This document shows positions 5,918 to 23,542 of a stretch of 64,000 bases of DNA, in pieces. The stretch's first letter is position 1; each line of letters starts with the position of its first letter. Location of the stretch: IMG/VR virus record IMGVR_UViG_3300027736_000027, positions 1 through 64,000 of that record, one strand, 5' to 3'. The notes below the pieces were generated by a model that was not told the origin of the DNA, did no database searches, and was given only the letters and a program-made list of their open reading frames with translations. A program made the position numbers and the translations under genes. The stretch comes from a virus.

Positions 5918-6550
5918 TTATCTACAAATTTTGCCGTCTACCGATAAATCCTGAGGTAACTCGCCTAAGCTGGTACAATTATATAAGACTAATTCTCCAC
6001 CAACCGTTAGGCCAGCAGGTAAACTCTTTAGGGACCTACAACCATGTAGGCTTAAGCTGCCATTAACCTTTAATCCAGCAGGTAAACTCTTTAATCCGGC
6101 ACAGCCATATAGGCTTAAGTTTCCGGCAACATTTAAGCCGGCAGGTAAACTCTCTAAACTAAAGCAGTTAGATAAGTCTAAGCTTCCGCTAATTTTTAAT
6201 CCAGCAGGTAAACTCTCTAAGCTGGTACAAGCATATAATTGTAAGCTTCCTCCAACCACTAGGTCATCCGGTAAACTCTTTAAGCCCGTACAGTACTCTA
6301 AGTTTAAGTTTTCTCTAACCACTAACCCATTAGGTAAACTCGTCAAAAGGGCACATCCACCTAGGTTTAAGGATTCACCTTCGCACCAACCTTTAATATA
6401 GTTAATAATACGCTGTTCAGCATCCCTAAGTTTCTTTAGATCGGCTAATTCTTTATCTGAAACTACTCCTATCTCATGAAGCCCTTGAGCCTCAGCAAAG
6501 GTATCGGCTGTTATAGGGTTCCATGATTCATATAGTTTAATATACTTCAT
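5918..6550 (-). CDS. Leader-tagged cysteine-ladder LRR protein (210 aa)
   Basis: Leader MKYIKLYESWNP, then the shared helical module (residues 13-55, with LHEIGVVSDKEL) and seven 21-residue repeats of the form L-x-S-L-P-A-G-L-x-V-x-G-x-L-x-L-x-x-C-T-x. Each repeat places one Cys at the same ladder position, and the last ends in the family signature ELPQDL. The gap to the gene upstream in transcription (6556) is only 5 bp, the same spacing used between most members, so these genes are co-transcribed. The target is unknown; the LPX-type solenoid suggests protein binding. Confidence 0.8.
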   Translation of the reverse strand: MKYIKLYESWNPITADTFAEAQGLHEIGVVSDKELADLKKLRDAEQRIINYIKGWCEGESLNLGGCALLTSLPNGLVVRENLNLEYCTGLKSLPDDLVVGGSLQLYACTSLESLPAGLKISGSLDLSNCFSLESLPAGLNVAGNLSLYGCAGLKSLPAGLKVNGSLSLHGCRSLKSLPAGLTVGGELVLYNCTSLGELPQDLSVDGKICR

Positions 6551-6555
6551 ATCAT

Positions 6556-7302
6556 TTATCTATAAATTTGACCTACTACGTTTAGGTCCTGCGGTAACTC
6601 GCCTAGGGCAGTACAGCCGTGTAAGTCTAAGTATCCGCGAACTTCTAGATCCGCAGGTAAACTCTTTAAACTCGTACAGCCCGTTAAGGATAGAACGCCG
6701 CCGATCTTTAAGCCAGCTGGTAAACTCTCTAGGTCAGTACAGTTATTTAAATTTAAGGTTGAATTAACTGTTAACCCAGCCGGTAAACGAGTTAGGGACG
6801 TACAGCCACTTGCGTGTATGGAGCCTCCAACCTTTAAACCTTGAGGTAACTCGCCTAATTTGGTACAGCCATTTAAATTTAAGTATGATCCAACCACTAG
6901 GTCATTAGGTAAACTCTCTAAGTTTGTACAAAAATTTAGTTCTAAGCCTCCGCTAATCACTAGACCAGCGGGTAGACTCCTTAAATTGGTACAACCGTTT
7001 GCGTATAGGTAGTCTTTGACCTTTAATCCAGCAGGTAAACTCTCTAAACTTGTACAACCATATAAGCCTAAGTTTCCGCCAACCTTTAAGCCATCCGGTA
7101 AACTCTTTAGCAAGGTACAGTCCCGTAAGTCTAGGCTCCCAACTCCAGAGTAGTGGAGAATCTCCCACTCAGTCGCCATAAGTTTCTCTAGCTGGGCTAA
7201 TTCCTGGTCAGAAACAATTCCTATTGAGTGTAGTTCTTGAGCCTCAGCAAAGGCCTCGTCTGACATGGGGTTCCAGTTTTCGTATAGTTTAAGATACTTC
7301 AT
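6556..7302 (-). CDS. Leader-tagged cysteine-ladder LRR protein (248 aa)
   Basis: Leader MKYLKLYENWNP, shared helical module (EAQELHSIGIVSDQEL) and nine LRR units of 21 residues, ending ELPQDLNVVGQIYR. One internal unit also uses the ELPQGL form usually found only in the last repeat, which suggests an internal duplication or a fusion of two smaller arrays. Same operon as its paralogs on both sides. Likely packaged; binding partner unknown. Confidence 0.8.
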   Translation of the reverse strand: MKYLKLYENWNPMSDEAFAEAQELHSIGIVSDQELAQLEKLMATEWEILHYSGVGSLDLRDCTLLKSLPDGLKVGGNLGLYGCTSLESLPAGLKVKDYLYANGCTNLRSLPAGLVISGGLELNFCTNLESLPNDLVVGSYLNLNGCTKLGELPQGLKVGGSIHASGCTSLTRLPAGLTVNSTLNLNNCTDLESLPAGLKIGGVLSLTGCTSLKSLPADLEVRGYLDLHGCTALGELPQDLNVVGQIYR

Positions 7303-7323
7303 TAGGGTTATTTATTCAGAATA

Positions 7324-8169
7324 TTATGCCGATTTAATTATTTGAGATAGGGTATTTGCTCTATTTTTAACTTGACCAGCCCATTCAGAGTCCAACATTT
7401 CGGTTGAGGCCTTTTTATAATTATTGGATAAAATATACTTTAGAAAATTATTAAATTTAGATAAGCCGGCCTTTCCTAAATTAAATACCATTTCAGTTAA
7501 AACACCCTGTACTGATAATGGTAGTTTTGGCCAAACTGTTGAAATATTTACCGAACGGTCTTGTGATATTAAGGTCTGTGCATCGTTTTTTGCCTGGATT
7601 AAATCATTGTTTAATAGAGTAGATATTTGAGCATCAGTAAGCTTGGCTTTTCCAGCTTTAATTTTAACCGGATTTGCTCCAACACTTTTAAGTAGTACAC
7701 TTGAATCTTCTCGGTTTAGGTTAAAGCCAACTCCAATCGTTGGATTTTTTTTAGTATCTAAATACTTAATATATTTTTTACCTTCATGCTGAATTACCCG
7801 GTCTTTAATTGAACTAACCACCTGGTCAGTAGACGGCGGTGGAGCAACAAATGTCCCTAAGCTGTTTTGAACCTGGATATTAGCAATATGATTATCAATT
7901 TGAGTTTTATAGCTTTGGTCAAAAATACCAAGTTCACCATTAATTGCATCGCCGACACTCGCATAGGCCCAATCTTTAGTTTTAAAGCCTGAGTTTAAAG
8001 CCTGATTTACCTTATTCATTGTTAATACATCAGGTATTGATAAAATGGCCTTTGCTAAGTTAGGTTCGGTTGTTCCAAGACCAGCACAGGCAACCTGAAT
8101 TTCATTTGCTATTTGATCAGAGGTTAAGGCCTCATTGATCCAACCTTCAAATACTTGTAAATACTTCAT
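7324..8169 (-). CDS. Leader-tagged T4-type lysozyme (GH24)
   Basis: Cleaves the glycan chain of peptidoglycan. The catalytic triad of T4-type lysozymes is readable as E129 (HEGKK), D138 (YLDTKK) and T144 (PTIGVGFNL), followed by the family's C-terminal helices (MVFNLGKAGLSKFNNFL... near residues 228-250). Residues 1-14 are a leader (MKYLQVFEGWINEA) with both V-F-E and I-N-E candidate sites. Residues 15-115 form a helical N-terminal domain not recognised with certainty. The leader and the position inside the LRR operon suggest a virion-packaged entry lysozyme rather than the cytoplasmic endolysin; that is inference. Confidence 0.85.
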   Translation of the reverse strand: MKYLQVFEGWINEALTSDQIANEIQVACAGLGTTEPNLAKAILSIPDVLTMNKVNQALNSGFKTKDWAYASVGDAINGELGIFDQSYKTQIDNHIANIQVQNSLGTFVAPPPSTDQVVSSIKDRVIQHEGKKYIKYLDTKKNPTIGVGFNLNREDSSVLLKSVGANPVKIKAGKAKLTDAQISTLLNNDLIQAKNDAQTLISQDRSVNISTVWPKLPLSVQGVLTEMVFNLGKAGLSKFNNFLKYILSNNYKKASTEMLDSEWAGQVKNRANTLSQIIKSA

Positions 8170-8174
8170 ATCAG

Positions 8175-8915
8175 TTATCTATAAATTTTGCCGCCAATCT
8201 TTAAGCCGGCAGGTAAACTCTCTAGGCCAAGGCAACCACCTAAGGTTAAGTCGCCATCAACAACTAGATCAGCAGGTAGACTCTTTAAGCCCGTACACCG
8301 ATTTAGGCTTAAGGTTCCACCGACCTTTAAGCCAGCTGGTAAACTCTTTAGCTGATAACAGTCAGTTAAGTATAAGTTTCCTCTAACCTCTAGACCAGCC
8401 GATAAACTCTCTAAACTCGTACAGCCTCTTAAGTCATCGCCAACCACTAAGCCAGCCGGTAAACTCGTTAAGCCCGTGCAGTTTGCTAAGTCTAATTGGC
8501 CACCAACCACCAGGCCAGCAGGTAAACTCGTTAAGGAAGAGCAGCCGAATAAAGTTAAGTCATCTTCAACCTTTAAGTCAGCCGGTAAACTCGTTAAGCT
8601 TGTACAGCCAGTTAGGTCTAAGTAGTCTCCAACAACTAGGCCAGCCGGTAAACTCCTTAAGCCAGTACAGTAATTTAGGTCTAAGAAGCCATCGACCTTT
8701 AAGCCAGCCGGTAAACCCGTTAATAAGGCACAGAAACTAAGATCTAAGTTGCCAAATCCTTTAAAATTAAGTATTTGGTGTTGAGCCTGCTTTAAACTAA
8801 CCAAGTCCTCTAATTCCTGACTTGAAACAACTCCTATTTGGTGCAGTTCCTGAGCTGACTCTAACTCTTGATCAGACAGAGGGTTCCATGATTCATATAG
8901 TTGCAGATACTTCAT
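8175..8915 (-). CDS. Leader-tagged cysteine-ladder LRR protein (246 aa)
   Basis: Leader MKYLQLYESWNP, helical module (SAQELHQIGVVSSQEL) and nine LRR units. The fifth unit is two residues short (VVGDDLRGCTS), a small deletion inside one beta-strand position, and the sixth has LESLSAGL in place of LESLPAGL. The protein ends with KIYR like its relatives. Spacing to the lysozyme gene downstream is 5 bp, so the lysozyme lies inside the LRR operon. Confidence 0.8.
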   Translation of the reverse strand: MKYLQLYESWNPLSDQELESAQELHQIGVVSSQELEDLVSLKQAQHQILNFKGFGNLDLSFCALLTGLPAGLKVDGFLDLNYCTGLRSLPAGLVVGDYLDLTGCTSLTSLPADLKVEDDLTLFGCSSLTSLPAGLVVGGQLDLANCTGLTSLPAGLVVGDDLRGCTSLESLSAGLEVRGNLYLTDCYQLKSLPAGLKVGGTLSLNRCTGLKSLPADLVVDGDLTLGGCLGLESLPAGLKIGGKIYR

Positions 8916-8920
8916 TAAGG

Positions 8921-9973
8921 TTATTTATAAATTTTGGCTCCAACCTTTAGGTCCTCGGGTAACTCGGCTAAGCTTGGACACGATCGTATGTATAGACTTG
9001 CAGAAACCTCTAGACCAGCAGGTAAACTCTTTAGTGAGGTACAGCAGTCGAGGTCTAAGTTGCCGTCGACCTTGAATCCAACCGGCAAACTTTCTAGGGC
9101 CGTACAGCCTTCTAAGTAGACTCCGCTTTCGACCTTTAAGTCAGCCGGTAAACTCTTTATACCGGTACAGCCTTCCATGTCAAGTTGACCGCCAACCACT
9201 AGGCCAGCAGGTAGACTCTCCAAGCCCGTACACCTTTTTATGTCTAGACCTCCGCCAATCTTTAAGCCATCAGGTAAACTCCTTAAGCCCGTACAGCCCC
9301 TTAAGTCTAATTCTCCCAGCACCTCTAAATCTGCCGGTATACTCTCTAAGCTCGTACAGCCATTTAGCTCTAATCGGCCATTGATCTTTAAGCCAGCAGG
9401 TAAACTCTTTAGTAGAGTACAGTAGTCTAGGATTAGGCTGCCAACCCCGTTATATTTAATAATACGCTGTTCAGCATCTCTAAGGATCTTTAGCTCGGCT
9501 AATTCCTGGCTTGACACAACTCCTATTTGGTGCAGCTCCTGAGCACTGGCAAGATCCTCAACGGATACTGTGTTCCAATTTTCATATAGTTTCGGCCCGC
9601 CTATTATTCGGCCGGCTACCTTTAGGTCTTGAGGTAAACTCTTTAAACCAGTACAGCCGTATAAGTATAGGTCACCGCCAACCTCTAGGCCAGCCGGTAA
9701 ACTCTTTAAACCCGTACAGGCAGTTAAGCCTAAATTTGCTCCAACTTTTAGGCCCTGAGGTAAACCAGTTAACAGAATAGTGTAACTTAAGTTTAGGTCC
9801 CCAACTCCTTTATAGTCGAGTATCCGTTTTGAACTGATTTTTAAATCATTTAGATCGGCTAATTCCTGATCAGAAATAACCCCTATCTTGTGCAGTTTCC
9901 TAGTCTCAGCAAAGTCCTTATCAGATAGAGGGTTCCAGTCCTCAAATTTTTCGAATAGTTTAATATACTTCAT
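8921..9973 (-). CDS. Double LRR protein: in-frame fusion of two family members (350 aa)
   Basis: Residues 1-14 are the leader MKYIKLFEKFEDWN; three LRR units follow (to about residue 122). Then, at about residues 125-133, a second partial leader (KLYENWNTV) occurs in mid-protein, followed by a second helical module (ASAQELHQIGVVSSQEL) and eight more LRR units ending ELPEDLKVGAKIYK. This is what one would get if the stop codon, the short spacer and the next start were lost, joining two adjacent family genes; the junction near 9590-9600 is a short GC-rich stretch encoding GGP. Confidence 0.85.
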   Translation of the reverse strand: MKYIKLFEKFEDWNPLSDKDFAETRKLHKIGVISDQELADLNDLKISSKRILDYKGVGDLNLSYTILLTGLPQGLKVGANLGLTACTGLKSLPAGLEVGGDLYLYGCTGLKSLPQDLKVAGRIIGGPKLYENWNTVSVEDLASAQELHQIGVVSSQELAELKILRDAEQRIIKYNGVGSLILDYCTLLKSLPAGLKINGRLELNGCTSLESIPADLEVLGELDLRGCTGLRSLPDGLKIGGGLDIKRCTGLESLPAGLVVGGQLDMEGCTGIKSLPADLKVESGVYLEGCTALESLPVGFKVDGNLDLDCCTSLKSLPAGLEVSASLYIRSCPSLAELPEDLKVGAKIYK

Positions 9974-9978
9974 ATCAT

Positions 9979-10725
9979 TTATCTATAAATTTGGCCGCCG
10001 ACCTTTAAGTCAGTCGGTAAACTCTCTAGGCGGGTACCACCCAAGAGTAAGTCTCTTTTAACCACTAGCCCAGCCGGCAAACTTGTTAAGCCGGTACAAC
10101 CATATAAGTCTAAGTTTCCGCCAACCTTTAGGCCAGCAGGTAAACTCCTTAAACCTGTGCAGTTTGCTAAGGTTAGGTTGCCAACCGCTATGTCAGCCGG
10201 TACACTCTCTAAGCGGGTACAGCCATCTAGGCTTAAGGTGTTGCCAACCTCTAGGCCAGCAGATAAATTCTTTAGGCTGGTACAGCCGTATAGGCTTAAG
10301 TTTCGGTCAACGATTAATCCAGTAGGTAAACTCTCTAGGGACGTACAGCCAATTAAGGTTAAGTCTCTGACCCTTAAGTTAGCCGGTATACTGGTTAGGG
10401 CCGTACAGCCACCTAATGCTAAGTATCCAATAACCTGTAGATCAGCAGGTAGACTCCTTAAGCCTGTACACTTATTTAGGTTTAACATGCCGTTAACCTT
10501 TAAGCCAGCCGGTAAACTCTTTAGTAGAGTACAGCTGTCTAGGTTTAGGTTGCCAACTCCAGGGTATTGAAGAATTTCCCGTTCAACATGCCTAAGTCTT
10601 CTGAGCTCGCTCAATTCCTTGTCGGACACAACTCCTATTTCATGAAGATCCTGAACATCTGAATAGGCCTCATCGGATACTGTTTTCCAGTCTTCAAATT
10701 TTTCATATAGTTTAATATACTTCAT
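9979..10725 (-). CDS. Leader-tagged cysteine-ladder LRR protein (248 aa)
   Basis: Leader MKYIKLYEKFEDW, helical module (SDVQDLHEIGVVSDKEL) and nine LRR units. Three units are one or two residues shorter than the 21-residue consensus (RVRDLTLIG, AVGNLTLAN, KRDLLLGGT), so the solenoid is less regular here. The N-terminus is nearly identical to those of the genes at 8921 and 10731, showing recent exchange or duplication of the 5' end. Part of the same minus-strand operon. Confidence 0.8.
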   Translation of the reverse strand: MKYIKLYEKFEDWKTVSDEAYSDVQDLHEIGVVSDKELSELRRLRHVEREILQYPGVGNLNLDSCTLLKSLPAGLKVNGMLNLNKCTGLRSLPADLQVIGYLALGGCTALTSIPANLRVRDLTLIGCTSLESLPTGLIVDRNLSLYGCTSLKNLSAGLEVGNTLSLDGCTRLESVPADIAVGNLTLANCTGLRSLPAGLKVGGNLDLYGCTGLTSLPAGLVVKRDLLLGGTRLESLPTDLKVGGQIYR

Positions 10726-10730
10726 ATACT

Positions 10731-11234
10731 TTATCTATAAATTCTACGGCCGACCTTTATGTCTTGAGGTAACTCGCCTAAGCTCGTACAGCGGAATAGG
10801 TTTAAGTCGCCGTCAACCACTAGCCCAGCCGGTAAACTTGTTAGCGAGGTACACCCGTTTAAGAATAGGTCTCTGCCAACGATTAAGCCCTGAGGTAGAC
10901 TCTTTAAGCGGGTACAGCCATATAGGCTTAAGCTGCCGCTAACAGTTAACTCATCAGGTAAACTCTCTAAGCTGTTACACCAATTTAGGTTTAAGTCTCC
11001 GCCAACCTCTAGGCCAGCCGGTAAACTTTTTAGCAGGGTGGAGTCAGCTAGGTCTAGGCTGCCAACTCCAGAGTAGTGCAGAATCGCTTGTTCAGCCCTC
11101 ATCAGTCTCTTTATCTCTCTAAATTCCTGATCTGAAACGACTCCTATTCCATGAAGCTCCTGAGCACTGGCAAGGTCCTCAACCGATACGGTTTTCCAGT
11201 CCTCAAATTTTTCATATAGTTTAATGTATTTCAT
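10731..11234 (-). CDS. Leader-tagged cysteine-ladder LRR protein, shortest member (167 aa)
   Basis: Leader MKYIKLYEKFEDWKTVSVEDL shares its first residues with the gene at 9979, while the stretch VSVEDLASAQELH is shared with the second half of the fusion at 8921, pointing to mosaic origin. Only five LRR units follow, ending ELPQDIKVGRRIYR. Same likely role as the paralogs: packaged binding protein with a solenoid of different length. Confidence 0.8.
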   Translation of the reverse strand: MKYIKLYEKFEDWKTVSVEDLASAQELHGIGVVSDQEFREIKRLMRAEQAILHYSGVGSLDLADSTLLKSLPAGLEVGGDLNLNWCNSLESLPDELTVSGSLSLYGCTRLKSLPQGLIVGRDLFLNGCTSLTSLPAGLVVDGDLNLFRCTSLGELPQDIKVGRRIYR

Positions 11235-11241
11235 TATCTTT

Positions 11242-11820
11242 CTATCTTAAAATTTGGCCGCCTACCCTTAGGTCTTGAGGTAACTCGGCTAGGGAGGTAC
11301 AGTCTCTTAAATTTAAGTCGCCCATAACCACTAGTCCAGCAGGTAAACTCGTTAGTGAGGTACAGCCGCCTAGCGATAAAAAGCCTAACACTTTTAACCC
11401 AGCCGGTAGACTCCTTAAGCCCGTACACCCGTTTGCATAAAAGTCTCCCATCACTTTGAATCCAGCAGGTAAACTCCTTAAGCCTGTGCAGTCAACAATA
11501 TTTAAACCTCCTCCAGGTTTTAAACCAGCAGGTAAACTCTCTAATCCAGTACAGCCGCTTAGAGTTAAGTAGCCAGTAACGGTTAAGTCGGCAGGTAAAT
11601 GTGTTAGACCCGTGCAGCCTCTTAAATTAGCGGACCCATTAACCTTTAATCCAGCGGGTAAACTCTTTAGCAGGGTACAGCCATCTAAGTTTAAGAAGCT
11701 CGACCCGAATTCAACACAGTTACGAAGTTGTTCCTCAGCCGCTTTTAGTTTTTTAAGCTCTGCACCTTCCACAGCTTCGGTAATTAAGTTAAATGAACGA
11801 TATGGGGTTAGGTACTTCAT
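11242..11820 (-). CDS. Leader-tagged cysteine-ladder LRR protein, variant N-terminus (192 aa)
   Basis: The N-terminus differs from the other LRR genes: MKYLTPYRSFNLITEA has I-T-E then A as the candidate cleavage site after residue 15, and the 40-residue helical module is replaced by a shorter helical stretch (GAELKKLKAAEEQL). Seven Cys-ladder LRR units follow, ending ELPQDLRVGGQILR. This is the first LRR gene of the run in transcription order. Confidence 0.8.
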   Translation of the reverse strand: MKYLTPYRSFNLITEAVEGAELKKLKAAEEQLRNCVEFGSSFLNLDGCTLLKSLPAGLKVNGSANLRGCTGLTHLPADLTVTGYLTLSGCTGLESLPAGLKPGGGLNIVDCTGLRSLPAGFKVMGDFYANGCTGLRSLPAGLKVLGFLSLGGCTSLTSLPAGLVVMGDLNLRDCTSLAELPQDLRVGGQILR

Positions 11821-12778: not shown

Positions 12779-13004
12779 GGGTTCTTATTTTTTTATTATT
12801 TATCTTCTTTATTGCCCAGGTTCTGGCTCTTTTTGTGCACATAAACACAGGTGCGCGCCTACCCTTACAATATAAAATATACCTAAACTATACACTATAC
12901 CAGGTCTACCTATCAGAAAAAAAAAAGAAATATACCAGGCTACCTAGCCAGGTACCAGACCCTCAACCCTATTCAAGATACCCGTCTACACTAGCCTGCA
13001 GACC
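12779..13004. other. Noncoding stretch between the tagged operon and the 58-bp array
   Basis: No credible gene. It begins AT-rich just upstream of the gene at 11825, where the promoter of the tagged operon should lie, and becomes CT- and GC-rich towards the array. Short runs such as CCAGG and TACC recur (for example 12931-12960), resembling degenerate versions of the array spacers. Confidence 0.5.
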
Positions 13005-13294
13005 GGGACTAGGGAGTACCTGGTACCTGTATAGAACAGACTCTAACCGGACCCGGCCCAGTGGGACTAGGGAGTCCCGGCCAGCCCGGACCAGCCGGCC
13101 CAGGAGCAATCTGCCCAGGTGGGACTAGGGAGTAAACCGGACCCTTGCCCCGGCCACCGGACCCCAACCTGACCAGGTGGGACTAGGGAGTACCCCGGCC
13201 GGGCTCTGTCCTGTGGGTACCAACCCGGCTTGCTCAAAGACTAGGGAGTACGGTGGCCCTCGACTCCGCGGCTCTACCGGATTCCCAGGGGTCT
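13005..13294 (+). repeat. Five-unit tandem array with exact 58-bp spacing, core GGGACTAGGGAGT
   Basis: The 10-mer ACTAGGGAGT starts at 13008, 13066, 13124, 13182 and 13240, so every step is exactly 58 bp. The first four copies are the 13-mer GGGACTAGGGAGT; the fifth is AAGACTAGGGAGT. Units 3 and 4 extend leftwards to CCAGGTGGGACTAGGGAGT. The 45 bp between cores are GC-rich and differ from unit to unit except for short shared ends. The array lies in the region leading into the recombinase gene at 13441. Candidate functions are an iteron-type binding array, a recombination or partition site, or an origin. Confidence 0.85.
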
Positions 13295-13440
13295 CGAGAG
13301 GGCCCGGCAGTTGGACACTAGTAGCAGGCTGCGGGACACGGGCAGGCCAGGCTTCCCGACAGGTAGCCGAGGCCCAGATAGATAAAACCATGGAAGAAGA
13401 AGAAATAGGGTCCCTGAAGCCTTTTCCGTCAGGGGAGTTG

Positions 13441-14025
13441 ATGTATAAGAAGGATGCAGCCAAGTTTGCTGGGGTCTCGTTGAAGACACTGGAGGGTTAT
13501 GTAGCTAAGGGTGTAATAAACAAGTGGAAGAATATTGTAAACGGCCGGACCTACTATGACAAGCAGGAGCTCTTGAAGATGATAGGCAGTCGCTTGCCGC
13601 AGAAGAGGCTCGTGATCGCCTACTGCCGGGCAGCACCGTTCCCGGATCGAGGAGCGGCCGGGGTTTCGGTACTGGCCAGGTTACAGGCACAGACGGACCG
13701 GGTACTCGGATATTGTACCGCAGCTGGGGTCCGGGTTGACGAGATAATCCAAGATACGGGTAAGGCTGGTAGCCTAGCTGGCCGATCAGGTCTCGATAGG
13801 CTCTTTGAGACCGTGCTTCGCAAGCAGGTAAGTATGGTTATAGTTGAGACTCCGGACCGGCTGGCCAGGTTTGCAGGTGCCGAGATTCTAGAGAGATTCC
13901 TGACCTGGCACGGTGTTGAACTGCATATAATACAGAAAGGATTACATCTAGAAGAGTACAGGGAAGAATTAAAAGAGGATCTATCTTATCTTATATTAGA
14001 GTCAAGAGCCCTGATTGGGGATTAA
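13441..14025 (+). CDS. IS607-type MerR-HTH / serine recombinase protein, probably catalytically impaired (194 aa)
   Basis: Residues 1-50 are a MerR-like helix-turn-helix (KKDAAKFAGVSLKTLEGYV, with NGRTYYDKQEL). Residues about 57-190 are the serine-recombinase catalytic fold (VIAYCRAA..., LARLQAQTDRVLGYC, a divergent match to LAGRSGLDRL, VIVETPDRLARF). The usual Y-x-R-V-S motif reads Y-C-R-A-A, so the nucleophilic serine appears replaced by alanine. Start 13441 was chosen because AGGGGAG lies just upstream; an in-frame ATG at 13390 is possible. The gene is markedly more GC-rich than the neighbourhood and is the only plus-strand gene in the first 32 kb. No partner TnpB is seen. It may bind the adjacent 58-bp array. 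Confidence 0.8.
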   Translation: MYKKDAAKFAGVSLKTLEGYVAKGVINKWKNIVNGRTYYDKQELLKMIGSRLPQKRLVIAYCRAAPFPDRGAAGVSVLARLQAQTDRVLGYCTAAGVRVDEIIQDTGKAGSLAGRSGLDRLFETVLRKQVSMVIVETPDRLARFAGAEILERFLTWHGVELHIIQKGLHLEEYREELKEDLSYLILESRALIGD

Positions 14026-16328: not shown

Positions 16329-17429
16329 TTATTGGCTGATGATAGGCTCAGAGTCAGAGTCAGTATCCGGTTCTTCAACCTCAGCTGGTCTGCCAACTGA
16401 CATAAAAAGATCAGTAAACTTGGACTCAAGTTCAGAACGCTTGTCCCTCTCTTGGTCGGCCAATTCGGCAACTTGGGTCTCTTGTCTCCATGAAGTTGCA
16501 TCCCAACGTACTTCACCTTCTACTAGGGAGTAGTATAGTCGCTTACCGATTAGGCTGCCTCCACGACGGTTCTTCGAGAACTCTACATATCTTCGACCGG
16601 CATCATCAAACTTAATCTCCATCATTGATGTTGTTGCATGTTTAAGGTAGGTACTTCCAACATATTGACCGCCTTTAGTCATGTGCTGAATTGCAAAGAT
16701 TGTTTTGCCTTTCTTATCAGCGGCTTCAATAATTAAGTTAGTTAACCAGGTCATGGCTCTGGTACTTTTCCAGCCAAGGATATCTGCTAATTTTACAATA
16801 ATATCTTGATGCGAGTCAATTAAGATAACATCATAGTCACCATTAATTGTGTCCTCCAATATCTTATCAAAGCGACCCATAACATAGTCCATCACGAGTA
16901 AGGTTGGCACATTTGCAATAATAGGGGTTTTTTGATAATAGAAGTAGAGGTCATTACGTGTCATCTCACTAGAGATATAGAGTATCTTTGCCTCAGGCTG
17001 AACTCGCTTAATCTTAGCCAAGATATCAAGTGTGACTGTTGATTTACCAACACCACTTTCGCCGATTACAATATTTGCAGTACCTGAATAGATACCACCG
17101 TCTTCCGTATGGTCAGAAAATAACTGGTCAATAAGATCGCCAGATTTCCAGGCAGTAAATGGCGGAAACTCCATATTGCCAATTTCAATTACTTCAGCCA
17201 CCATTTCGGTTGGTATAACTGGTTGAACCGGTACTAGGGAGTTCGGCTCGGTGCCGTCTTTTAACTTCTTTACAACTCCATTAAAGAGACCATAACTTAC
17301 CCCGGTCTCGGTTGAGGTTGTCATATACTGAGTATATAACTGTTGAACACTGCGGTCATGTGGTACTTGACCTTCATAAGCTTCTGTAAAGAATGCTCGT
17401 ACATCTAATTCTTTTTTGCCGATTTGCAT
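16329..17429 (-). CDS. RecA-fold DNA repair/recombination ATPase (366 aa)
   Basis: Walker A is GESGVGKST at residues 123-131 and Walker B is VILIDSH at 201-207. The motif SKNRRGG (about residue 290) recalls the KNRFG motif of RadA/KaiC-like ATPases. Residues 1-110 are a leader-less N-terminal domain, and the C-terminal 60 residues are charged and acidic. Likely a phage recombinase, or a RadA-like or DnaB-like motor used in replication-coupled recombination. Two copies of the ACTAGGGAGT motif (16522, 17233) lie inside the coding sequence and are read as S-L-V in the same frame. Confidence 0.75.
   Translation of the reverse strand: MQIGKKELDVRAFFTEAYEGQVPHDRSVQQLYTQYMTTSTETGVSYGLFNGVVKKLKDGTEPNSLVPVQPVIPTEMVAEVIEIGNMEFPPFTAWKSGDLIDQLFSDHTEDGGIYSGTANIVIGESGVGKSTVTLDILAKIKRVQPEAKILYISSEMTRNDLYFYYQKTPIIANVPTLLVMDYVMGRFDKILEDTINGDYDVILIDSHQDIIVKLADILGWKSTRAMTWLTNLIIEAADKKGKTIFAIQHMTKGGQYVGSTYLKHATTSMMEIKFDDAGRRYVEFSKNRRGGSLIGKRLYYSLVEGEVRWDATSWRQETQVAELADQERDKRSELESKFTDLFMSVGRPAEVEEPDTDSDSEPIISQ
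16522..16531 (+). repeat. Dispersed ACTAGGGAGT motif, inside the RecA-like gene
   Basis: Exact copy of the array core on the plus strand; on the coding (minus) strand it encodes Y-S-L-V. Confidence 0.7.
17233..17242 (+). repeat. Dispersed ACTAGGGAGT motif, inside the RecA-like gene
   Basis: Exact copy on the plus strand, in the context GTACTAGGGAGTTC that is shared with the copy inside the sigma-factor gene; encodes N-S-L-V on the minus strand. Confidence 0.7.
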
Positions 17430-17531: not shown

Positions 17532-17541
17532 ACTAGGGAGT
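17532..17541 (+). repeat. Dispersed ACTAGGGAGT motif, intergenic
   Basis: Exact copy 8 bp beyond the stop codon of the minus-strand gene at 17550, that is, just downstream of that gene. Confidence 0.7.
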
Positions 17542-17790: not shown

Positions 17791-17838
17791 GTAAATATAA
17801 GTATAATTTTTGACATCTAAAAATAAAGTTATTAACAA
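17791..17838 (-). promoter_or_regulatory. Early promoter element, short-spacer class
   Basis: Minus strand: TTGTTAATAACTTT, short A/T spacer, GTCAAAAATTATACTTATATTTAC; upstream of the gene at 17550. The distal box begins right at the stop codon of the gene at 17839. Confidence 0.75.
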
Positions 17839-18096
17839 TTATCGGACCTCACCGCTAGTAATAATTCCTTCAAAGGTTGTGAGCTTCTTAAACTCTTTAG
17901 TTGGAAAATAGGCTCTGCCGTCTTCTAAATCAAAGTTTCCATTAAAGTTTTCAAGAATTGCTTCAACATTATCTTTATCTGACTCTATTACTAAGAACCT
18001 GGAACCTGGAACAGGAACATCGTCGTCACCTAATAATTTTTCAATAAGATCGCTGTCATCAGTGATCTGAAATACTGAGAATTTTTCTATTTTCAT
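17839..18096 (-). CDS. Small early-region protein (85 aa)
   Basis: Not recognised. MKIEKFSVFQITDDSDLIEKLLGDDD..., alternating strands and helices, with an ASP-rich centre. It has a typical cassette position with a promoter element at 18122-18158 and a 5' sequence (CTATAGGGGTTA) shared with the genes at 17550 and 18159. Confidence 0.6.
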   Translation of the reverse strand: MKIEKFSVFQITDDSDLIEKLLGDDDVPVPGSRFLVIESDKDNVEAILENFNGNFDLEDGRAYFPTKEFKKLTTFEGIITSGEVR

Positions 18097-18121
18097 AATC
18101 TATAGGGGTTAATTGATTGGT

Positions 18122-18158
18122 TAAATATAAGTATAATTTTTGACACCTGACAATTTAA
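18122..18158 (-). promoter_or_regulatory. Early promoter element, lacking the distal TTGTTAATAAC box
   Basis: Keeps TGTCAAAAATTATACTTATATTTA and TTGTCAGG, but the distal box is missing and replaced by the 3' end of the gene at 18159. Upstream of the gene at 17839. Confidence 0.65.
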
Positions 18159-18455
18159 TTAAATTAAATCATCAAAATAAAGAGTAAGGGCCCGGTTCTG
18201 GCCGGTTGAGATGTTTATATTATTACTGCCGATTTCGTATCTATTACCTTTTTTAATTAGGCGCTTTGCTCGGGTAAGTCGGGACTCAGTCAGCTGGTCA
18301 TTTACTGGGCTGCGAGGCGCTACATGATACGATGTGGAAGTATATTCTCCACCGCAACCACATCTGCAATGGGCATCTTTGCCGATATAGGTTTGTGATA
18401 TTTGACTTAAGTTAAAGCCTAAAAATTGGTCAACTGTGATTAGCTCAGGTTTCAT
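18159..18455 (-). CDS. Small early-region protein with Cys/His cluster (98 aa)
   Basis: Not recognised as a family. Residues about 28-45 read DAHCRCGCGGEY with a downstream His, which could bind zinc; the pattern HCRCGCGG recalls the C-G-C-G segments of phage M15-like proteins but no catalytic set is present. Preceded by a promoter element at 18481-18539. Confidence 0.6.
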   Translation of the reverse strand: MKPELITVDQFLGFNLSQISQTYIGKDAHCRCGCGGEYTSTSYHVAPRSPVNDQLTESRLTRAKRLIKKGNRYEIGSNNINISTGQNRALTLYFDDLI

Positions 18456-18480
18456 TTGATATAGGGGTTAATTGGTTAGA

Positions 18481-18539
18481 GTAAATATACCAAATTTATT
18501 TGACACCTGACAATTTATTTTCATAAAGTTATTAACAAT
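18481..18539 (-). promoter_or_regulatory. Early promoter element, long-spacer class
   Basis: Minus strand TTGTTAATAACTTT, then ATGAAAATAAATTG, then TGTCAAATAAATTTGGTATATTTAC. The proximal part differs slightly (TTTGGTATATTTA), like the copy at 19626. Upstream of the gene at 18159. Confidence 0.75.
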
Positions 18540-18630
18540 TTGGCTGTTAACAATTCCCTAAATATGTCGTAGGTCGGAGTCTACCTCCCGCTCCTGGTTT
18601 GGACCGTCCCGTCTAGATTAGTTGACAAGG
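18540..18630 (-). ncRNA. Possible small RNA downstream of an orphan promoter element
   Basis: A full promoter element (18631-18688) points into this stretch, but no ORF follows before the next promoter. It contains AGGTCGGAGTCTACC (18571-18585), which is repeated exactly at 30341-30355. Short stems are possible (AGGT/ACCT, GGAG/CTCC). A tiny noncoding transcript is the simplest reading; it could instead be the remains of a deleted cassette. Confidence 0.35.
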
Positions 18631-18688
18631 TAAATATAAGTATAATATTTGACACCTGACAATTTATTTTAGAGAAGTTATTAACAAT
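18631..18688 (-). promoter_or_regulatory. Early promoter element, long class, without a downstream ORF
   Basis: Complete copy: TTGTTAATAACTTC, spacer, TTGTCAGGTGTCAAATATTATACTTATATTTA. The distal box overlaps the stop codon of the gene at 18681. No coding frame follows before 18540. Confidence 0.7.
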
Positions 18689-18908
18689 CTTCTTGCACAG
18701 TAAAATTTACCGGGCCAACTGTTACTCGTTTGCCTATGAGGTCGTCTATACAATATCTCTCATCTGCCGGTCCGCGAAAGATTTGATCGTCTGTCCAATC
18801 GTCCGAATTAAGTAAGAGTTTAAGAGTTTCCCGAGTTGAATACGTCGATTGTCTTCCCCAATTGTCTACGGTCTCGACACAGTCGATAATTTCTATTGAT
18901 GTTTGCAT
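18681..18908 (-). CDS. Small early-region protein (75 aa)
   Basis: Not recognised. MQTSIEIIDCVETVDNWGRQ..., with a strand-rich C-terminus (LIGKRVTVGPVNFTVQEDC). Its stop codon is embedded in the distal box of the next promoter (TGTTAATAAC), showing how tightly gene ends and promoters are joined here. Confidence 0.6.
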   Translation of the reverse strand: MQTSIEIIDCVETVDNWGRQSTYSTRETLKLLLNSDDWTDDQIFRGPADERYCIDDLIGKRVTVGPVNFTVQEDC

Positions 18909-18928
18909 AATTTAATTTTTTAAAAGGG

Positions 18929-19144
18929 TTAGTGTTCAATTATTTCTAGTTCCTGGTCCCCAACTTTTACAATGGAACCAATAAATTCAGAGCTCGAGCC
19001 CATTTTTACCTTGCCCTTATCTAAATAGTCAAGGTCAATATCGGTCTCTAACACTTTAAGTGTTTCATAAATAGTATTAGGGTCCTTGATACATACATCA
19101 GTTGCACCGCCCTTGTTTACGTATATTCTTATAATCTCTATCAT
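18929..19144 (-). CDS. Small early-region protein (71 aa)
   Basis: Not recognised. The start at 19144 (MIEIIRIYVNKGG) is chosen because the longer frame (to 19204) would translate through an inverted repeat. Similar in size and overall pattern to the next gene (an N-terminal strand, acidic middle, VKVGDQELEI C-terminus), and possibly a distant paralog. Confidence 0.6.
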   Translation of the reverse strand: MIEIIRIYVNKGGATDVCIKDPNTIYETLKVLETDIDLDYLDKGKVKMGSSSEFIGSIVKVGDQELEIIEH

Positions 19145-19178
19145 TTTCAATTCTTTTTTAGGTTTATATAACACTGAG

Positions 19179-19202
19179 TAGGGACCTCCATTCAGAGGTC
19201 CC
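19179..19202 (-). terminator. Hairpin after the gene at 19210, weak terminator
   Basis: GGGACCTC-TGAATG-GAGGTCCC forms a strong stem directly after the stop of the gene at 19210, but no T-run follows on the minus strand, so termination is uncertain. Confidence 0.45.
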
Positions 19203-19209
19203 AAATTTA

Positions 19210-19602
19210 TTATACAGTTCCGGCTCTTAAGATTTCAAGTTGAGATGCGGTAAGTGACTCAATTCCGTTTTGACTTATGAGGTCAAGAATATCGTCCAGT
19301 GTCCATCTTGGATTTACAGGTTGTGGTGTAACTTCTGAATTTCCTGTTAGCTTATTAATCGCCTCCATTAATCCCTCGGGTAAATTCTGGTTTAGTGCGC
19401 CTTCTTCGATTAGGAAGAATAGTGCCCCAGTTTTTGATAACTGCTGGGTGATCGTGGAAGGATCTGACTCGGTGTTAAATACTGAAAGAATTGCTCCAGG
19501 AATTGGACCGGCAAAAGCTCGGCCGCTAATGTGTTTAGCTAATACATTAGTAACCTCTGGGTTTGGAACATTTCCAAAACGAATTAAAAATAATTTTTTC
19601 AT
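19210..19602 (-). CDS. Early-region hypothetical protein (130 aa)
   Basis: Not recognised. The start at 19602 (MKKLFLIRFGNVPNP) is preferred over the longer frame to 19653, which would run back into the promoter. An N-terminal alpha/beta part is followed by a C-terminal helical segment (TLDDILDLISQNGIESLTASQLEIL). Preceded by a promoter element at 19626. Confidence 0.6.
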   Translation of the reverse strand: MKKLFLIRFGNVPNPEVTNVLAKHISGRAFAGPIPGAILSVFNTESDPSTITQQLSKTGALFFLIEEGALNQNLPEGLMEAINKLTGNSEVTPQPVNPRWTLDDILDLISQNGIESLTASQLEILRAGTV

Positions 19603-19625
19603 GTCTGCTTGGTTTAATTGGTTAA

Positions 19626-19684
19626 GTAAATATACCAAATTTATTTGACACAAAAAAATTTATTTAGGGAAAGTTATTAACAAT
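19626..19684 (-). promoter_or_regulatory. Early promoter element, long class
   Basis: TTGTTAATAACTTTCC, spacer, GTGTCAAATAAATTTGGTATATTTAC on the minus strand, upstream of the gene at 19210. Same proximal variant as the copy at 18481. Confidence 0.7.
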
Positions 19685-20479
19685 TTACAGACCAGCGGTT
19701 GCAGTTGCGGTATAGGCATTACCTGCTGCCACGGTAACAGTACCGGTTATTTGGCTGCCCAGCCCTGAACTTGTCGAGAGAACCGTTGCTCCGGATCTTA
19801 TTTCGGCAACTCCATTGCGGTCCGCCGTTGTTATTACCTGAACTTTAAATGTATCGCCAGCAACTATCGAATAGTACGTACCTGAATCTGTGCCGTATCT
19901 GGTCTCGACTACTACATTATTTTTATATAGTTTAAAGGTTGCAGATGTATTTTCAGCCTTGGTGAAGTTCCATTGAATACTTGGCAAGAAGAGTGTTGTT
20001 GTGGTAGTGGTTGCTGGACCAGGCGCAGCCGTTGTTGTTGAAGTGGTAGATGTTGAAGAGGTTGTTGTTGATGTTGGTACCAGTGCACCGGTCCTGATAT
20101 TACTCAGGGTAAACGGAGTTACTCCATTTATTATTGAACTATTTAAGGCAGTGGCAAAGGCATTTAGCTCATTCCTAGAAGGAAAAGAGATCATAATTGG
20201 TGCCCTTTCTCTAATTGATATAAAGGCATCGGTCGATTCGCTTACGGTTTCCAGCGATATAATATTTTGGCCAGGGTTGAATACTGTAATTTCTCGAGTC
20301 TTTCCTGCTTCCAGAATCTGCAACTTCATCTGCCCAGCGGGTCCAATTAGTTTGGTAGTCGTTGTGGTTGTTGACGTTGAAGAGGTTGTTGTTGACGTTG
20401 AAGAGGTTGTTGTTGAGGTAGGAGCAATTGTAGTTGTTGTTGTAGGAGCAATTGTAGTTGTTGTTGTTATGGCAGCCAT
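19685..20479 (-). CDS. Thr-rich low-complexity protein with beta domains (264 aa)
   Basis: Residues 1-42 are runs of Thr and Ser with IAP breaks (TTTTTIAPTTTTTIAP), then a beta-rich domain (about 43-130), a second Thr/Ser linker (about 137-165) and a C-terminal beta-rich domain (about 168-264). Such Thr-rich linkers join beta domains in phage fibre-like or decoration proteins. The trinucleotide repeat DNA (GTT/GTA runs) would allow slippage. It stands out from the small early genes around it and lacks the standard promoter element. Confidence 0.65.
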   Translation of the reverse strand: MAAITTTTTIAPTTTTTIAPTSTTTSSTSTTTSSTSTTTTTTKLIGPAGQMKLQILEAGKTREITVFNPGQNIISLETVSESTDAFISIRERAPIMISFPSRNELNAFATALNSSIINGVTPFTLSNIRTGALVPTSTTTSSTSTTSTTTAAPGPATTTTTTLFLPSIQWNFTKAENTSATFKLYKNNVVVETRYGTDSGTYYSIVAGDTFKVQVITTADRNGVAEIRSGATVLSTSSGLGSQITGTVTVAAGNAYTATATAGL

Positions 20480-20538
20480 TTGGTTAAATATATTTTATAA
20501 TCAATTGATATTATCTTATCTATTATATCTATTAAATG

Positions 20539-20568
20539 AAAAAGGGTCTACCCTCTCGAGCAGACCCT
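20539..20568 (-). terminator. Intrinsic terminator after the gene at 20596
   Basis: AGGGTCT-12 nt loop-AGACCCT followed by five T on the minus strand, about 30 bp downstream of the stop. Confidence 0.75.
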
Positions 20569-20595
20569 ACGGAATTAAACCAATTAAACCGCCAT

Positions 20596-20922
20596 TTAAA
20601 CTCTTTTTACCTCAACCTTTTCTAATTTTGCAGCCTTACCAAGTGGAGACCATAAGGCCTCTTCCACTGTTTCAAACTCCAAAGTATTCCATATCCAAAC
20701 CAGACCCTGCCCTTTTGCCTGTTCTCGAGCAGCACGCTCCCCAATATTAGGGCTTGCGATACTCAACTTAAACAGTGCAAGTTGATATGCTGATTTAAAT
20801 GTACCTGCAACATAAACTGGTCTATGTGTCTCAACGATCCTTTCGGTCAAGAGCCATACCCATTTTTTATTTCTTAGTGGGCTAGGCACCGCGCTCTGTT
20901 GTAAAGATACAGTATATTCCAA
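20596..20922 (-). CDS. Early-region hypothetical protein (108 aa)
   Basis: Not recognised. It contains a Trp-rich N-terminal strand region (KWVWLLTERIVETHRPVYVAG), a helix (SAYQLALFKLSI) and a basic C-terminus (KAAKLEKVEVKRV). It is followed by a good intrinsic terminator. Precedes the Thr-rich protein gene in transcription. Confidence 0.6.
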   Translation of the reverse strand: MEYTVSLQQSAVPSPLRNKKWVWLLTERIVETHRPVYVAGTFKSAYQLALFKLSIASPNIGERAAREQAKGQGLVWIWNTLEFETVEEALWSPLGKAAKLEKVEVKRV

Positions 20923-20976
20923 ACAGAATCGATCCGATTATTACTATTCCACACATATTGATTGGGATTAAATAGG

Positions 20977-21237
20977 TTAAGGTTTTTCTTTTATCTCTTC
21001 AACTAACTTCTTTAAGTCAGCGCACTTCTCGTACTGTTCCTTTGTTTCAAAGTACTTTATCATAGTCCATATTGCCTCACGTTTTTCAGTGACCGGGGAT
21101 TTATCATGGGCAATCGATCTAAACTCGCCGGCCAAGGCATCGTATAGTCTGTCCATAAATGCATCATAGTCAGTTTCTCGAAGAGTAATTAACTCTAATA
21201 GGATATCTTCGTATTTTATTGTGGGCTTCTTTGCCAT
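20977..21237 (-). CDS. Small helical protein (86 aa)
   Basis: MAKKPTIKYEDILLELITLRE... All-helical and charged, with a C-terminal KEQYEKCADLKKLVEEIKEKP segment similar to helices seen in many phage proteins and in UvrB/UvrC-type motifs. A related segment (KLEKYEYCQVL) occurs in the small protein at 42817. Function unknown. Confidence 0.6.
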   Translation of the reverse strand: MAKKPTIKYEDILLELITLRETDYDAFMDRLYDALAGEFRSIAHDKSPVTEKREAIWTMIKYFETKEQYEKCADLKKLVEEIKEKP

Positions 21238-21270
21238 AGGTCTTTGTTTATTTATTATGTAATTAATATA

Positions 21271-21381
21271 CTAAAAAAAATAGGTCCAGACAAGACAGGC
21301 AATAAAGCTGACAGTTAAACCTGCAAGCGCAAGCATTATTATCCATTCAGAGTCCTGTTTGTTTTTATCGTTTAGATTCAT
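21271..21381 (-). CDS. Single-pass membrane micro-protein (36 aa)
   Basis: MNLNDKNKQDSEWIIM then a hydrophobic helix (LALAGLTVSFIACLVWTYFF) ending at the stop: an N-terminal soluble part and one membrane span. One of several tiny membrane proteins in this region; such proteins are common among phage early genes acting on the host envelope. Confidence 0.5.
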   Translation of the reverse strand: MNLNDKNKQDSEWIIMLALAGLTVSFIACLVWTYFF

Positions 21382-21420
21382 ACCATTAAGATTTATAATA
21401 TTATATTGCCGAGCGACCGC

Positions 21421-21582
21421 TTAGTTTTCAGCTAAATGGATACTCAACGCGGATTTAATTGTACCCTGTAGATATCCTATTATTGCTGCATGGGATTTCT
21501 CGCCCTCTTTCCAGTCTTTTTCACTGGTATCTAGTGCACTGCTTAGCAGTTTTATCAGTCGGTCTTTTTCTACTTGTGTCAT
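21421..21582 (-). CDS. Small helical protein (53 aa)
   Basis: MTQVEKDRLIKLLSSALDTSEKDW..., helical and charged with no Cys. The start codon is followed by a typical coding pattern, and the frame fills the gap between neighbours with no overlap. Function unknown. Confidence 0.5.
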   Translation of the reverse strand: MTQVEKDRLIKLLSSALDTSEKDWKEGEKSHAAIIGYLQGTIKSALSIHLAEN

Positions 21583-21603
21583 GGGTTATTTGGGGTTATA
21601 TTA

Positions 21604-21834
21604 TTAATATGAGTATGAATCGAATTTACCATCGCAGAATAGAATAAAGATTGTTTCATTTTTTCTACCATCTTTTACTTCGATAGAAACGTTGGCATAT
21701 CCTTTATCAGTATCAAGAAGATTATCGATATCTTCAAAAGTTAATAGGTCACTAAATTCGTTAAGGAACTCAGTAGCCGTCATTTCTTCGGCAAATTTTA
21801 AAATTTTGGATTTGAATGGTGTTTTTGTTTTCAT
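21604..21834 (-). CDS. Small early-region protein (76 aa)
   Basis: MKTKTPFKSKILKFAEEMTATEFL... is preferred over a longer frame starting at 21861. A helical first half, with a strand-rich C-terminus (VSIEVKDGRKNETIFILFCDGKF). Not recognised. Confidence 0.55.
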   Translation of the reverse strand: MKTKTPFKSKILKFAEEMTATEFLNEFSDLLTFEDIDNLLDTDKGYANVSIEVKDGRKNETIFILFCDGKFDSYSY

Positions 21835-21864
21835 ATGTTTATTATTAAATGGTATATACAAAGG

Positions 21865-22146
21865 TTAATCATTAATGAATAGGAACTTAAAACTTTTTCC
21901 ATTTTGCGGGTTGAAGCCACGGTACCACCAGCCTGCAATATCTTCTCCACCGTCACTAGAGTCAACTGAGGTTCGGGTCATTCTGATCTGGTTGCCAGTT
22001 GCTGGATTCTTTACATAGATTGGCGTTGCCTGGTAGCACAGATCCGTTATTTCAAACCGGGTCTGCTCTAGAGAAGAGAGCTCGGCTACAAAGGTAGAGT
22101 CTTCTTTATTGAAGCTAATTGCTGGATGATTTATTTCTATTATCAT
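21865..22146 (-). CDS. Small early-region protein (93 aa)
   Basis: Strand-rich, not recognised (MIIEINHPAISFNKEDSTF..., WWYRGFNPQNGKSFKFLF). The start codon overlaps the TGA stop of the gene at 22143 (ATGA), the classic arrangement for translational coupling. Confidence 0.6.
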   Translation of the reverse strand: MIIEINHPAISFNKEDSTFVAELSSLEQTRFEITDLCYQATPIYVKNPATGNQIRMTRTSVDSSDGGEDIAGWWYRGFNPQNGKSFKFLFIND

Positions 22147-22286
22147 GATCTGGTTTTTTTAAATGTTTCTAATTTCTCAACTCCATGGATATCAATAAAC
22201 TCTTGAATAGGAATCAATTCTGTTTCTGAATCGTCAATCCATAGGATTTCTACAAACTCATTGTTTAGGATATTTAAGATTTTCAT
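22143..22286 (-). CDS. Small protein translationally coupled to its neighbours (47 aa)
   Basis: MKILNILNNEFVEILWIDDSETELIPIQEF... Its start overlaps the stop of the gene at 22283 and its stop overlaps the start of the gene at 21865, so the three form a coupled set. Not recognised. Confidence 0.55.
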   Translation of the reverse strand: MKILNILNNEFVEILWIDDSETELIPIQEFIDIHGVEKLETFKKTRS

Positions 22287-22483
22287 GCAAACATCTTCCT
22301 TCCCATCTCAATAAACAAATCATACTCTGACTCGCCCATTAACTCTTTTAATTCCGCAACATGTGCATGGTATTCTGCTGCTTTTTTGCAAGCCTCTGCC
22401 CATTTACCGGCAGACTGCAATTCTTTAAATTCCCAATTGGTATCTATTACCTTGGAAAATATTTTACTTTCAGCGTTTGTCAT
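22283..22483 (-). CDS. Small helical protein (66 aa)
   Basis: All-helical (ESKIFSKVIDTNWEFKELQSAGKWAEACKKAAEYHAHV). Similar in style to the helical protein encoded at 22495, upstream of it. First gene of the coupled trio 22283 / 22143 / 21865. Function unknown. Confidence 0.55.
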   Translation of the reverse strand: MTNAESKIFSKVIDTNWEFKELQSAGKWAEACKKAAEYHAHVAELKELMGESEYDLFIEMGRKMFA

Positions 22484-22494
22484 TTTATCTAGTG

Positions 22495-22671: not shown

Positions 22672-22699
22672 TGTTGATTGGGGTTAATTGATTAATATA

Positions 22700-22909: not shown

Positions 22910-22931
22910 ATTAATAGTTTAATTGGTTTAA

Positions 22932-23324: not shown

Positions 23325-23542
23325 TAGTTTAATCGAGTCTTCATGCACTGGGCAACGCACTGATTAAATTCTTCTTCACTAAGCTCTGAGGTATCCTCTT
23401 CTAGCAACTTCTTTAGGGTTGTATTATATAGAATATCAACTAGTCGAGTCTTGTCTACCTTGCCGCTAAATGGGTCGCCTTCGGAAAATAGGATCTCGAC
23501 ACCGGTCTCTGCCCAGAAACGGGCTTCAGTTGTGGTTAGCAT
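23324..23542 (-). CDS. Small protein overlapping the sigma-factor gene (72 aa)
   Basis: MLTTTEARFWAETGVEILFSEGDPF..., helical with an acidic C-terminal half (LLEEDTSELSEEEFNQCV). Its start overlaps the 3' end of the sigma gene by 7 bp, so it is co-transcribed and probably translationally coupled. A regulator of the sigma factor is possible but nothing in the sequence proves it. Confidence 0.6.
   Translation of the reverse strand: MLTTTEARFWAETGVEILFSEGDPFSGKVDKTRLVDILYNTTLKKLLEEDTSELSEEEFNQCVAQCMKTRLN

What the first reader, a model, noticed from the sequence alone, without database searches (positions are those of the whole stretch)
13005..13294. Exact 58-bp periodic array of ACTAGGGAGT next to a recombinase-like gene
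Five cores at perfectly constant 58-bp steps with variable 45-bp spacers do not fit a CRISPR (repeat only 13 bp) or a simple duplication (spacers differ). The constant pitch (about 5.5 helical turns) suggests selection on spacing, as in protein-binding or origin arrays. The adjacent MerR-HTH protein is a natural candidate for the binding factor.
Basis: partly seen in the sequence, partly recalled or inferred. Interest (0 to 1): 0.75.

Follow-up and report, generated by a model that had tools for sequence, protein, structure and literature searches.

The report
Strand-locked phage sites beside dead transposase
In a family of very large uncultured phages, a gene for a transposase that has lost its cutting residue sits beside an evenly spaced row of identical short DNA sites, and more copies of the same site, all facing the same way, are strewn over the next 10 to 25 thousand bases, which looks like a DNA-organising or gene-control system not described before.

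Summary
The array is real: ACTAGGGAGT lies at 13008, 13066, 13124, 13182 and 13240, exactly 58 bp apart. It is the dense end of something larger. The same 10-mer occurs seven more times between 16522 and 29699, always on the + strand; the 110,950-bp record has 12 forward and 0 reverse. Related phages (complete map 271 kb) show the same layout: 164 forward to 1 reverse site in 21 records. Neighbouring sites less than 130 bp apart lie 56, 57 or 58 bp apart in 32 of 37 cases, even inside genes. Synonymous codons are frozen over coding sites. The flanking gene (13390-14025) encodes an IS607-type TnpA fold that lacks the catalytic serine in all 17 relatives checked. A distant branch (protein about 30% identical) uses ACTACGGAGT instead, again on one strand. 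I read this as a domesticated, catalytically dead transposase and its direction-sensitive binding sites: a nucleating array upstream of its own gene plus a one-sided field over the neighbouring block of mostly minus-strand genes. DNA-level selection is well supported. That TnpA is the binder is inferred. Whether the output is gene regulation, genome organisation or replication initiation is open.

The parts
13008..13017 (+). array site 1, ACTAGGGAGT
13066..13075 (+). array site 2
13124..13133 (+). array site 3
13182..13191 (+). array site 4
13240..13249 (+). array site 5; 150 bp before the tnpA-like ATG. The last site lies 143-154 bp before the ATG in the GGG-clade relatives measured
13208..13220 (+). 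mid-spacer element GTCCTGTGGGTAC in the last spacer (GCCCAAAGGGTAC or close variants in relatives)
12779..13389 (.). intergenic control region: conserved GCGCGCC block (12851-12859), A+T-richer stretch with a conserved AGTCTACYTATA-like block, then the G+C-rich array and leader
13390..14025 (+). tnpA-like gene: N-terminal winged-HTH plus IS607-type serine-recombinase domain, catalytic Ser replaced by Ala (residue 82)
13581..13590 (+). GATAGGCAGT, a probably decayed in-gene site (3 mismatches) at +191, where relatives keep an intact one
   Evidence: position by inspection
16522..16531 (+). solitary site inside the RadA/RecA-like ATPase gene (codons TAC TCC CTA GT on the minus strand)
17233..17242 (+). 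solitary site inside the same gene, +196 from its start
17532..17541 (+). solitary intergenic site, 103 bp upstream of the ATPase gene
16329..17429 (-). RadA/RecA-like ATPase gene that carries conserved internal sites in the relatives
24113..24122 (+). solitary site inside the phage sigma factor gene, +145
24361..24370 (+). solitary intergenic site, 103 bp upstream of the sigma factor gene
23536..24258 (-). phage sigma-70-type factor gene
28968..28977 (+). solitary site, 51 bp upstream of a minus-strand ORF; a comparable site lies 52 bp upstream of an ORF in G001
29450..29459 (+). one-base variant ACTAGGGAGA; variants too are only on the + strand
29699..29708 (+). solitary site just after a minus-strand gene end, 51 bp before a TATATTTA promoter-like element

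Best explanation
A catalytically dead, domesticated IS607-type TnpA protein and its asymmetric binding site ACTA(G/C)GGAGT form a polar nucleoprotein system. Dimers bind the 57-58-bp-pitched array upstream of their own gene, where they nucleate and autoregulate, and use the array as an anchor. From there they bridge or extend to identically oriented solitary sites over the neighbouring 10-25 kb of mostly minus-strand genes. The most likely output is control of that gene block (own gene, RadA-like ATPase, sigma factor, small genes) by looping or filament formation. Shown: selection at the DNA level on sequence, orientation and pitch; loss of the catalytic Ser; constant adjacency of array and gene. 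Inferred: that this protein is the binder, that it bridges or polymerises, and that the output is transcriptional.
For: The site occurs 12/0 (forward/reverse) in the window's record and 164/1 in 21 records. The pitch is 56-58 bp in 32 of 37 close pairs, including a pair inside the tnpA gene of G017 and pairs upstream of minus-strand genes. In the RadA-like gene only 16 of 173 invariant residues use one codon in nine relatives, yet the motif codons TAC TCC CTA are all frozen. A site inside tnpA stays 327-365 bp from the nearest upstream site although it falls on different codons in the two branches (LGS versus TTES). The array lies next to tnpA in every record that holds that junction. The protein lacks Ser in all 17 members checked (A, P, N or G) while three active relatives keep RVS; it is nonetheless conserved and folds like IS607 TnpA. 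A diverged protein branch goes with a one-base shift of nearly all sites. IS607 TnpA is known to bind short direct repeats, nucleate there, spread, and pair two DNA ends (PMC6188088). At least 51% of sites are intergenic against 19% of bases.
Against: No binding data exist. Only about 3 of some 20 TATATTTA promoter-like elements in the window region have a site within 80 bp, so it is not a simple operator for each promoter. Orientation is fixed in absolute terms, not relative to gene direction, which ordinary operators do not need. The G/C switch is not perfectly congruent with the protein tree: L122/G024 groups with the GGG-type proteins but mostly has ACTACGGAGT, and several genomes mix both. 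A pitch of about 5.5 turns puts neighbouring sites on opposite DNA faces, unlike the helically phased IS1535 motifs.
Confidence: 0.5

Rival explanations
1. The array is an iteron-type replication origin: the dead TnpA serves as an initiator that binds direct repeats next to an A+T-richer stretch, and the outlying sites titrate or relay the initiator.
For: Direct repeats of constant pitch beside the gene of their likely binder; an A+T-richer conserved segment and a GCGCGCC block just outside the array; evenly spaced iterons are reported at T4 oriE, with unknown role (PMC3016281).
Against: The distant branch keeps only 1-3 upstream sites. DnaB helicase and DNA polymerase B genes lie far away. 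No GC-skew switch at the array in the complete 271-kb map. An 8-26 kb one-sided field is not a feature of iteron origins. T4 oriE repeats have a 24-bp pitch inside gene 5.
Confidence: 0.2
2. The sites are polar guide sequences for a moving machine (KOPS- or Chi-like: translocase, recombination enzyme or fork-directing protein), with the array as loading or stop site.
For: Exact short motif, absolute strand lock, one-sided field at about one site per 1.5-3 kb that becomes dense at one end, tolerance of coding or non-coding position. KOPS are 8-bp oriented guides read by FtsK (PMC2680272).
Against: The field covers under 10% of the 271-kb genome, whereas KOPS and Chi are genome-wide. The 56-58-bp pitch has no place in such models. 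No reader protein is identified.
Confidence: 0.15
3. RNA-level pairing: the tnpA leader transcript (ACUAGGGAGU repeats) pairs with ACUCCCUAGU in minus-strand mRNAs.
For: The strand lock and exactness of the 10-mer would follow from base pairing.
Against: A fixed 56-58-bp pitch in arrays, in leaders of minus-strand genes and inside genes is not explained. tnpA mRNA itself carries the same sense in its coding region. Sites are not at start codons. No conserved leader fold was found (weak alifold consensus).
Confidence: 0.05
4. The array is the left end of a recently inserted, mobile IS607 element.
For: IS607-type TnpA with short direct repeats upstream.
Against: Catalytic Ser missing in all members; conserved synteny with the ATPase gene in all clades; no tnpB partner seen in this locus; the same site recurs far outside the gene.
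Confidence: 0.03

Closest known systems
IS607-family TnpA at its transposon left end (IS1535, eLife 2018, PMC6188088)
   Same: Fold and domain order (N-terminal winged HTH, serine-recombinase domain); short directly repeated binding motifs upstream of the gene; nucleation and pairing of two DNA segments known for the family.
   Different: Here the catalytic Ser is gone, no tnpB or element ends were seen, the pitch is 56-58 bp rather than about 10-11 bp, and the same oriented motif is scattered over 8-26 kb.
MrpR/SPBRE of Bacillus prophage SPbeta (PMC10516654)
   Same: A recombinase fold that lost catalysis became a DNA-binding regulator with repeated short elements dispersed in the phage genome.
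   Different: Tyrosine- not serine-recombinase fold; temperate phage; no constant-pitch array described in the passages read.
T4 oriE iterons (PMC3016281)
   Same: Evenly spaced direct repeats in a lytic phage genome, role unknown.
   Different: T4 repeats measured here: 24-bp pitch, degenerate, inside gene 5 coding sequence; no strand-locked field was looked for or described.
KOPS/FtsK and Chi-type oriented guide motifs
   Same: Short exact motif with strict strand polarity, tolerant of coding context.
   Different: Local rather than genome-wide, with a pitched array and a dedicated adjacent gene.

Membership tests
IS607-type serine recombinase fold (TnpA) | HTH plus resolvase-type catalytic domain homologous to IS607 TnpA | tested here: met
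   Pfam Resolvase 3.1e-12, PHROG 6620 2.4e-26, PDB 6dgc/3ilx/3lhf by sequence and fold
active IS607 transposase | catalytic Ser in Y-x-R-V-S | tested here: not met
   A/P/N/G in all 17 members; S in the three active controls
IS607 mobile element | variable insertion position, element with tnpB | tested here: not met
   same neighbourhood in all clades; no tnpB among the window ORFs read
iteron replication origin | direct repeats beside the initiator gene and an A+T-rich unwinding stretch | tested here: inconclusive
   repeats and an A+T-richer stretch present; array reduced to 1-3 sites in the distant branch
iteron replication origin | replication starts there | not testable with these tools
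   needs infection read depth or nascent-strand mapping
CRISPR array | repeats of about 23-47 bp with unique spacers and cas genes | tested here: not met
   10-11-bp core; solitary copies outside the array; last spacer conserved between phages
MrpR/SPBRE-type dead-recombinase regulator | recombinase fold without catalysis plus dispersed exact elements | tested here: met
   (analogy only: different fold family)
MrpR/SPBRE-type dead-recombinase regulator | protein binds the elements and represses | not testable with these tools
   needs gel shift, ChIP or expression data
KOPS/Chi-like guide motif | strand-locked motif | tested here: met
   164:1; ACTACGGAGT also one-stranded
KOPS/Chi-like guide motif | genome-wide distribution | tested here: not met
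   all 10 sites of the complete G005 lie within 8.2 kb

The most novel reading that the evidence does not exclude
A new kind of phage genome-organising system: a catalytically dead serine transposase reads a strand-locked, one-sided field of exact sites that condenses into a 57-bp-pitched array, giving a polar nucleoprotein structure that marks and controls a defined genome segment.
Probability: 0.35. Interest if true: 0.88.

Novelty: new variant of a known kind. Interest (0 to 1): 0.72.

Why it matters
It would be the first described domesticated IS607-type serine transposase working as a structural or regulatory DNA-binding protein (no such report was found in the searches made), and a rare case of an absolute strand lock on protein-binding sites outside chromosome-segregation and recombination signals. 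The exact, exceptionless motif makes function directly testable with purified protein and simple reporters. It also bears on the open question of what evenly spaced direct repeats do in large lytic phage genomes.

Tried and rejected
CRISPR and simple tandem duplication: rejected (short core, unlike spacers, solitary copies). Assembly artefact: rejected (independent contigs and relatives). Active IS607 element: rejected (no Ser, fixed synteny). T7-like promoter (resemblance to CACTATAGGGAGA): no single-subunit RNA polymerase hit, but the control did not ring either, so that search is uninformative; orientation would give antisense transcripts. Structured leader RNA: weak alifold consensus only. 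GC-skew evidence for an origin: none. AlphaFold model of the RadA-like ATPase: pLDDT 51, not interpreted. T4 oriE iterons as the same thing: 24-bp coding repeat, different. Contigs G014, G018 and G022 with motif pairs at 61, 51 and 61 bp share flanks around both copies and no relative of the protein was found in the stretches fetched, so I treat them as chance. No named phage carries a close relative (best tblastn identity 31%).

Full report
OBSERVATION. The five cores are in the sequence as stated: GACTAGGGAGT at 13007, 13065, 13123, 13181 and 13239, at exact 58-bp steps. No comparable run of any 10-mer arises in 20 Markov-1 resamplings. Spacers are essentially unlike each other. The contig L009, which has small base differences, shows the same five copies, so a collapsed-repeat artefact is unlikely.

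MORE THAN AN ARRAY. The exact 10-mer occurs seven more times in the window (16522, 17233, 17532, 24113, 24361, 28968, 29699), all on the + strand; the whole 110,950-bp record has 12 forward, 0 reverse and 0 of the reversed control. The window belongs to a virus record of IMG/VR. Relatives were fetched by protein and by DNA pattern. One of them, G005, is a complete circular map of 271,160 bp (its contig ends overlap by 130 bp). Each relative carries the sites on one strand only, in a cluster of about 8-18 kb. Over 21 records, 164 sites point one way and 1 the other; some of these records are related, so they are not independent samples. Near variants (ACTAGGGAGA, ACTACGGAGT) in the site regions are also only on that strand.

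PITCH. All neighbouring sites less than 130 bp apart were measured: 56 bp (7), 57 bp (16), 58 bp (9), 63 bp (4), 68 bp (1). The 56-58-bp pitch recurs in places that are not the array: inside the tnpA-like gene of G017, just downstream of it, and in pairs upstream of minus-strand genes in G002, G012 and G015. The last array spacer has a conserved centre, GCCCAAAGGGTAC or close variants, and the last site lies 143-154 bp from the tnpA ATG in the GGG-clade relatives measured.

DNA-LEVEL SELECTION. In nine RadA-like ATPase genes only 16 of 173 invariant residues use one codon throughout; the three codons of the conserved site (TAC TCC CTA) are all frozen, although only 1 of 11 invariant Ser and 1 of 18 invariant Leu are. 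In tnpA itself the internal site falls on different codons in the two branches (LGS against TTES) yet stays about 327-365 bp from the nearest upstream site. About half the sites are intergenic although only 19% of the sequence is; the gene calls were rough and count some array sites as coding.

THE PROTEIN. The gene 13390-14025 encodes a winged-HTH plus resolvase domain, closest by sequence and fold to IS607-family TnpA (model pLDDT 79.9). Three active phage-borne relatives have Y-x-R-V-S; all 17 members of this family checked have A, P, N or G at the Ser position, while DR..R motifs are kept. The family is separated from the active controls with support 100/99, although the long branches there are flagged by the tree tool. 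So it is a conserved, catalytically dead transposase.

CO-VARIATION. Phages with RadA-like proteins 48-53% identical and TnpA-like proteins about 30% identical have no ACTAGGGAGT but 5-15 copies of ACTACGGAGT, again nearly all on one strand (one exception, in G027). In this branch the array is reduced to 1-3 sites and the field reaches about 22-26 kb, roughly one site per 1.5-3 kb. An intermediate record, G024/L122, has seven of the new and two of the old form. The match to the protein tree is good but not perfect, so I take it as support, not proof, that this protein reads the site.

MECHANISM. IS607 TnpA binds short direct repeats upstream of its gene, nucleates there, spreads and captures a second DNA (PMC6188088). 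A protein of this type that cannot cut but can still bind and bridge would explain the direct repeats, the array upstream of its own gene, and the need for equal orientation if the assembly is polar. I therefore favour a polar nucleoprotein structure that controls the adjacent block of mostly minus-strand genes, including its own gene, the ATPase and the sigma factor. Weak points: few promoters have a site, the orientation is absolute rather than tied to gene direction, and a 57-bp pitch is about 5.5 helical turns. An iteron origin (0.2) and a guide-motif function (0.15) remain open.

RELATION TO KNOWN SYSTEMS. It works most like the dead tyrosine-recombinase repressor MrpR with its dispersed SPBRE elements (PMC10516654), but from the serine-recombinase fold and with a pitched array and strand lock. 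It fails the test for an active IS607 transposase. T4 oriE repeats differ in pitch and nature. A literature search for the motif and for such a protein found nothing on this system. The only bacterial-genome hit is a 254-kb contig binned with an uncultured Bacteroidetes genome, probably such a phage, which hints at the host.

Noticed in passing
G005 264458-264823 and 36877-37935; G019 49042-49407 and 94348-94677: Two separate open frames match different parts of family-B DNA polymerase, about 43-45 kb apart, suggesting a split polymerase.
   Followed up: no
32740-32930: G+C-rich imperfect tandem repeat of 57-59 bp between divergent gene blocks, without the ACTAGGGAGT motif; the similar period is perhaps a coincidence.
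   Followed up: partly
5918-11820: A run of minus-strand genes with 63-nt (21-residue) leucine-rich-type repeats (SLPAGL...GGDL).
   Followed up: no
many ORFs, e.g. 33603-35949, 46879, 49651, 60725-61801: Shared N-terminal leader such as MKHIKLFEGF/MIKSFSQFxxE, reminiscent of T4 capsid-targeting sequences of internal head proteins.
   Followed up: no
17800-30600, minus strand: About 20 TATATTTA promoter-like elements upstream of small minus-strand genes, resembling the Bacteroidota -7 box.
   Followed up: partly
44041-45909: Full-length DnaK-like chaperone gene matching a dedicated phage family (phrog_22485).
   Followed up: no
G005, whole record: 10-mers such as CCAGAAGAAC and GTTCCAGAAG occur about 95-104 times, almost all on one strand, probably coding repeats.
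   Followed up: no
L147 (CAIWBA010000291.1): A 254-kb contig with the array and protein is binned in an uncultured Bacteroidetes MAG: a likely phage contig in the bin and a host hint.
   Followed up: partly
G023 2392: The one reverse-oriented ACTAGGGAGT found in a contig (4.5 kb) that also has the paired, 58-bp-spaced forward sites.
   Followed up: no
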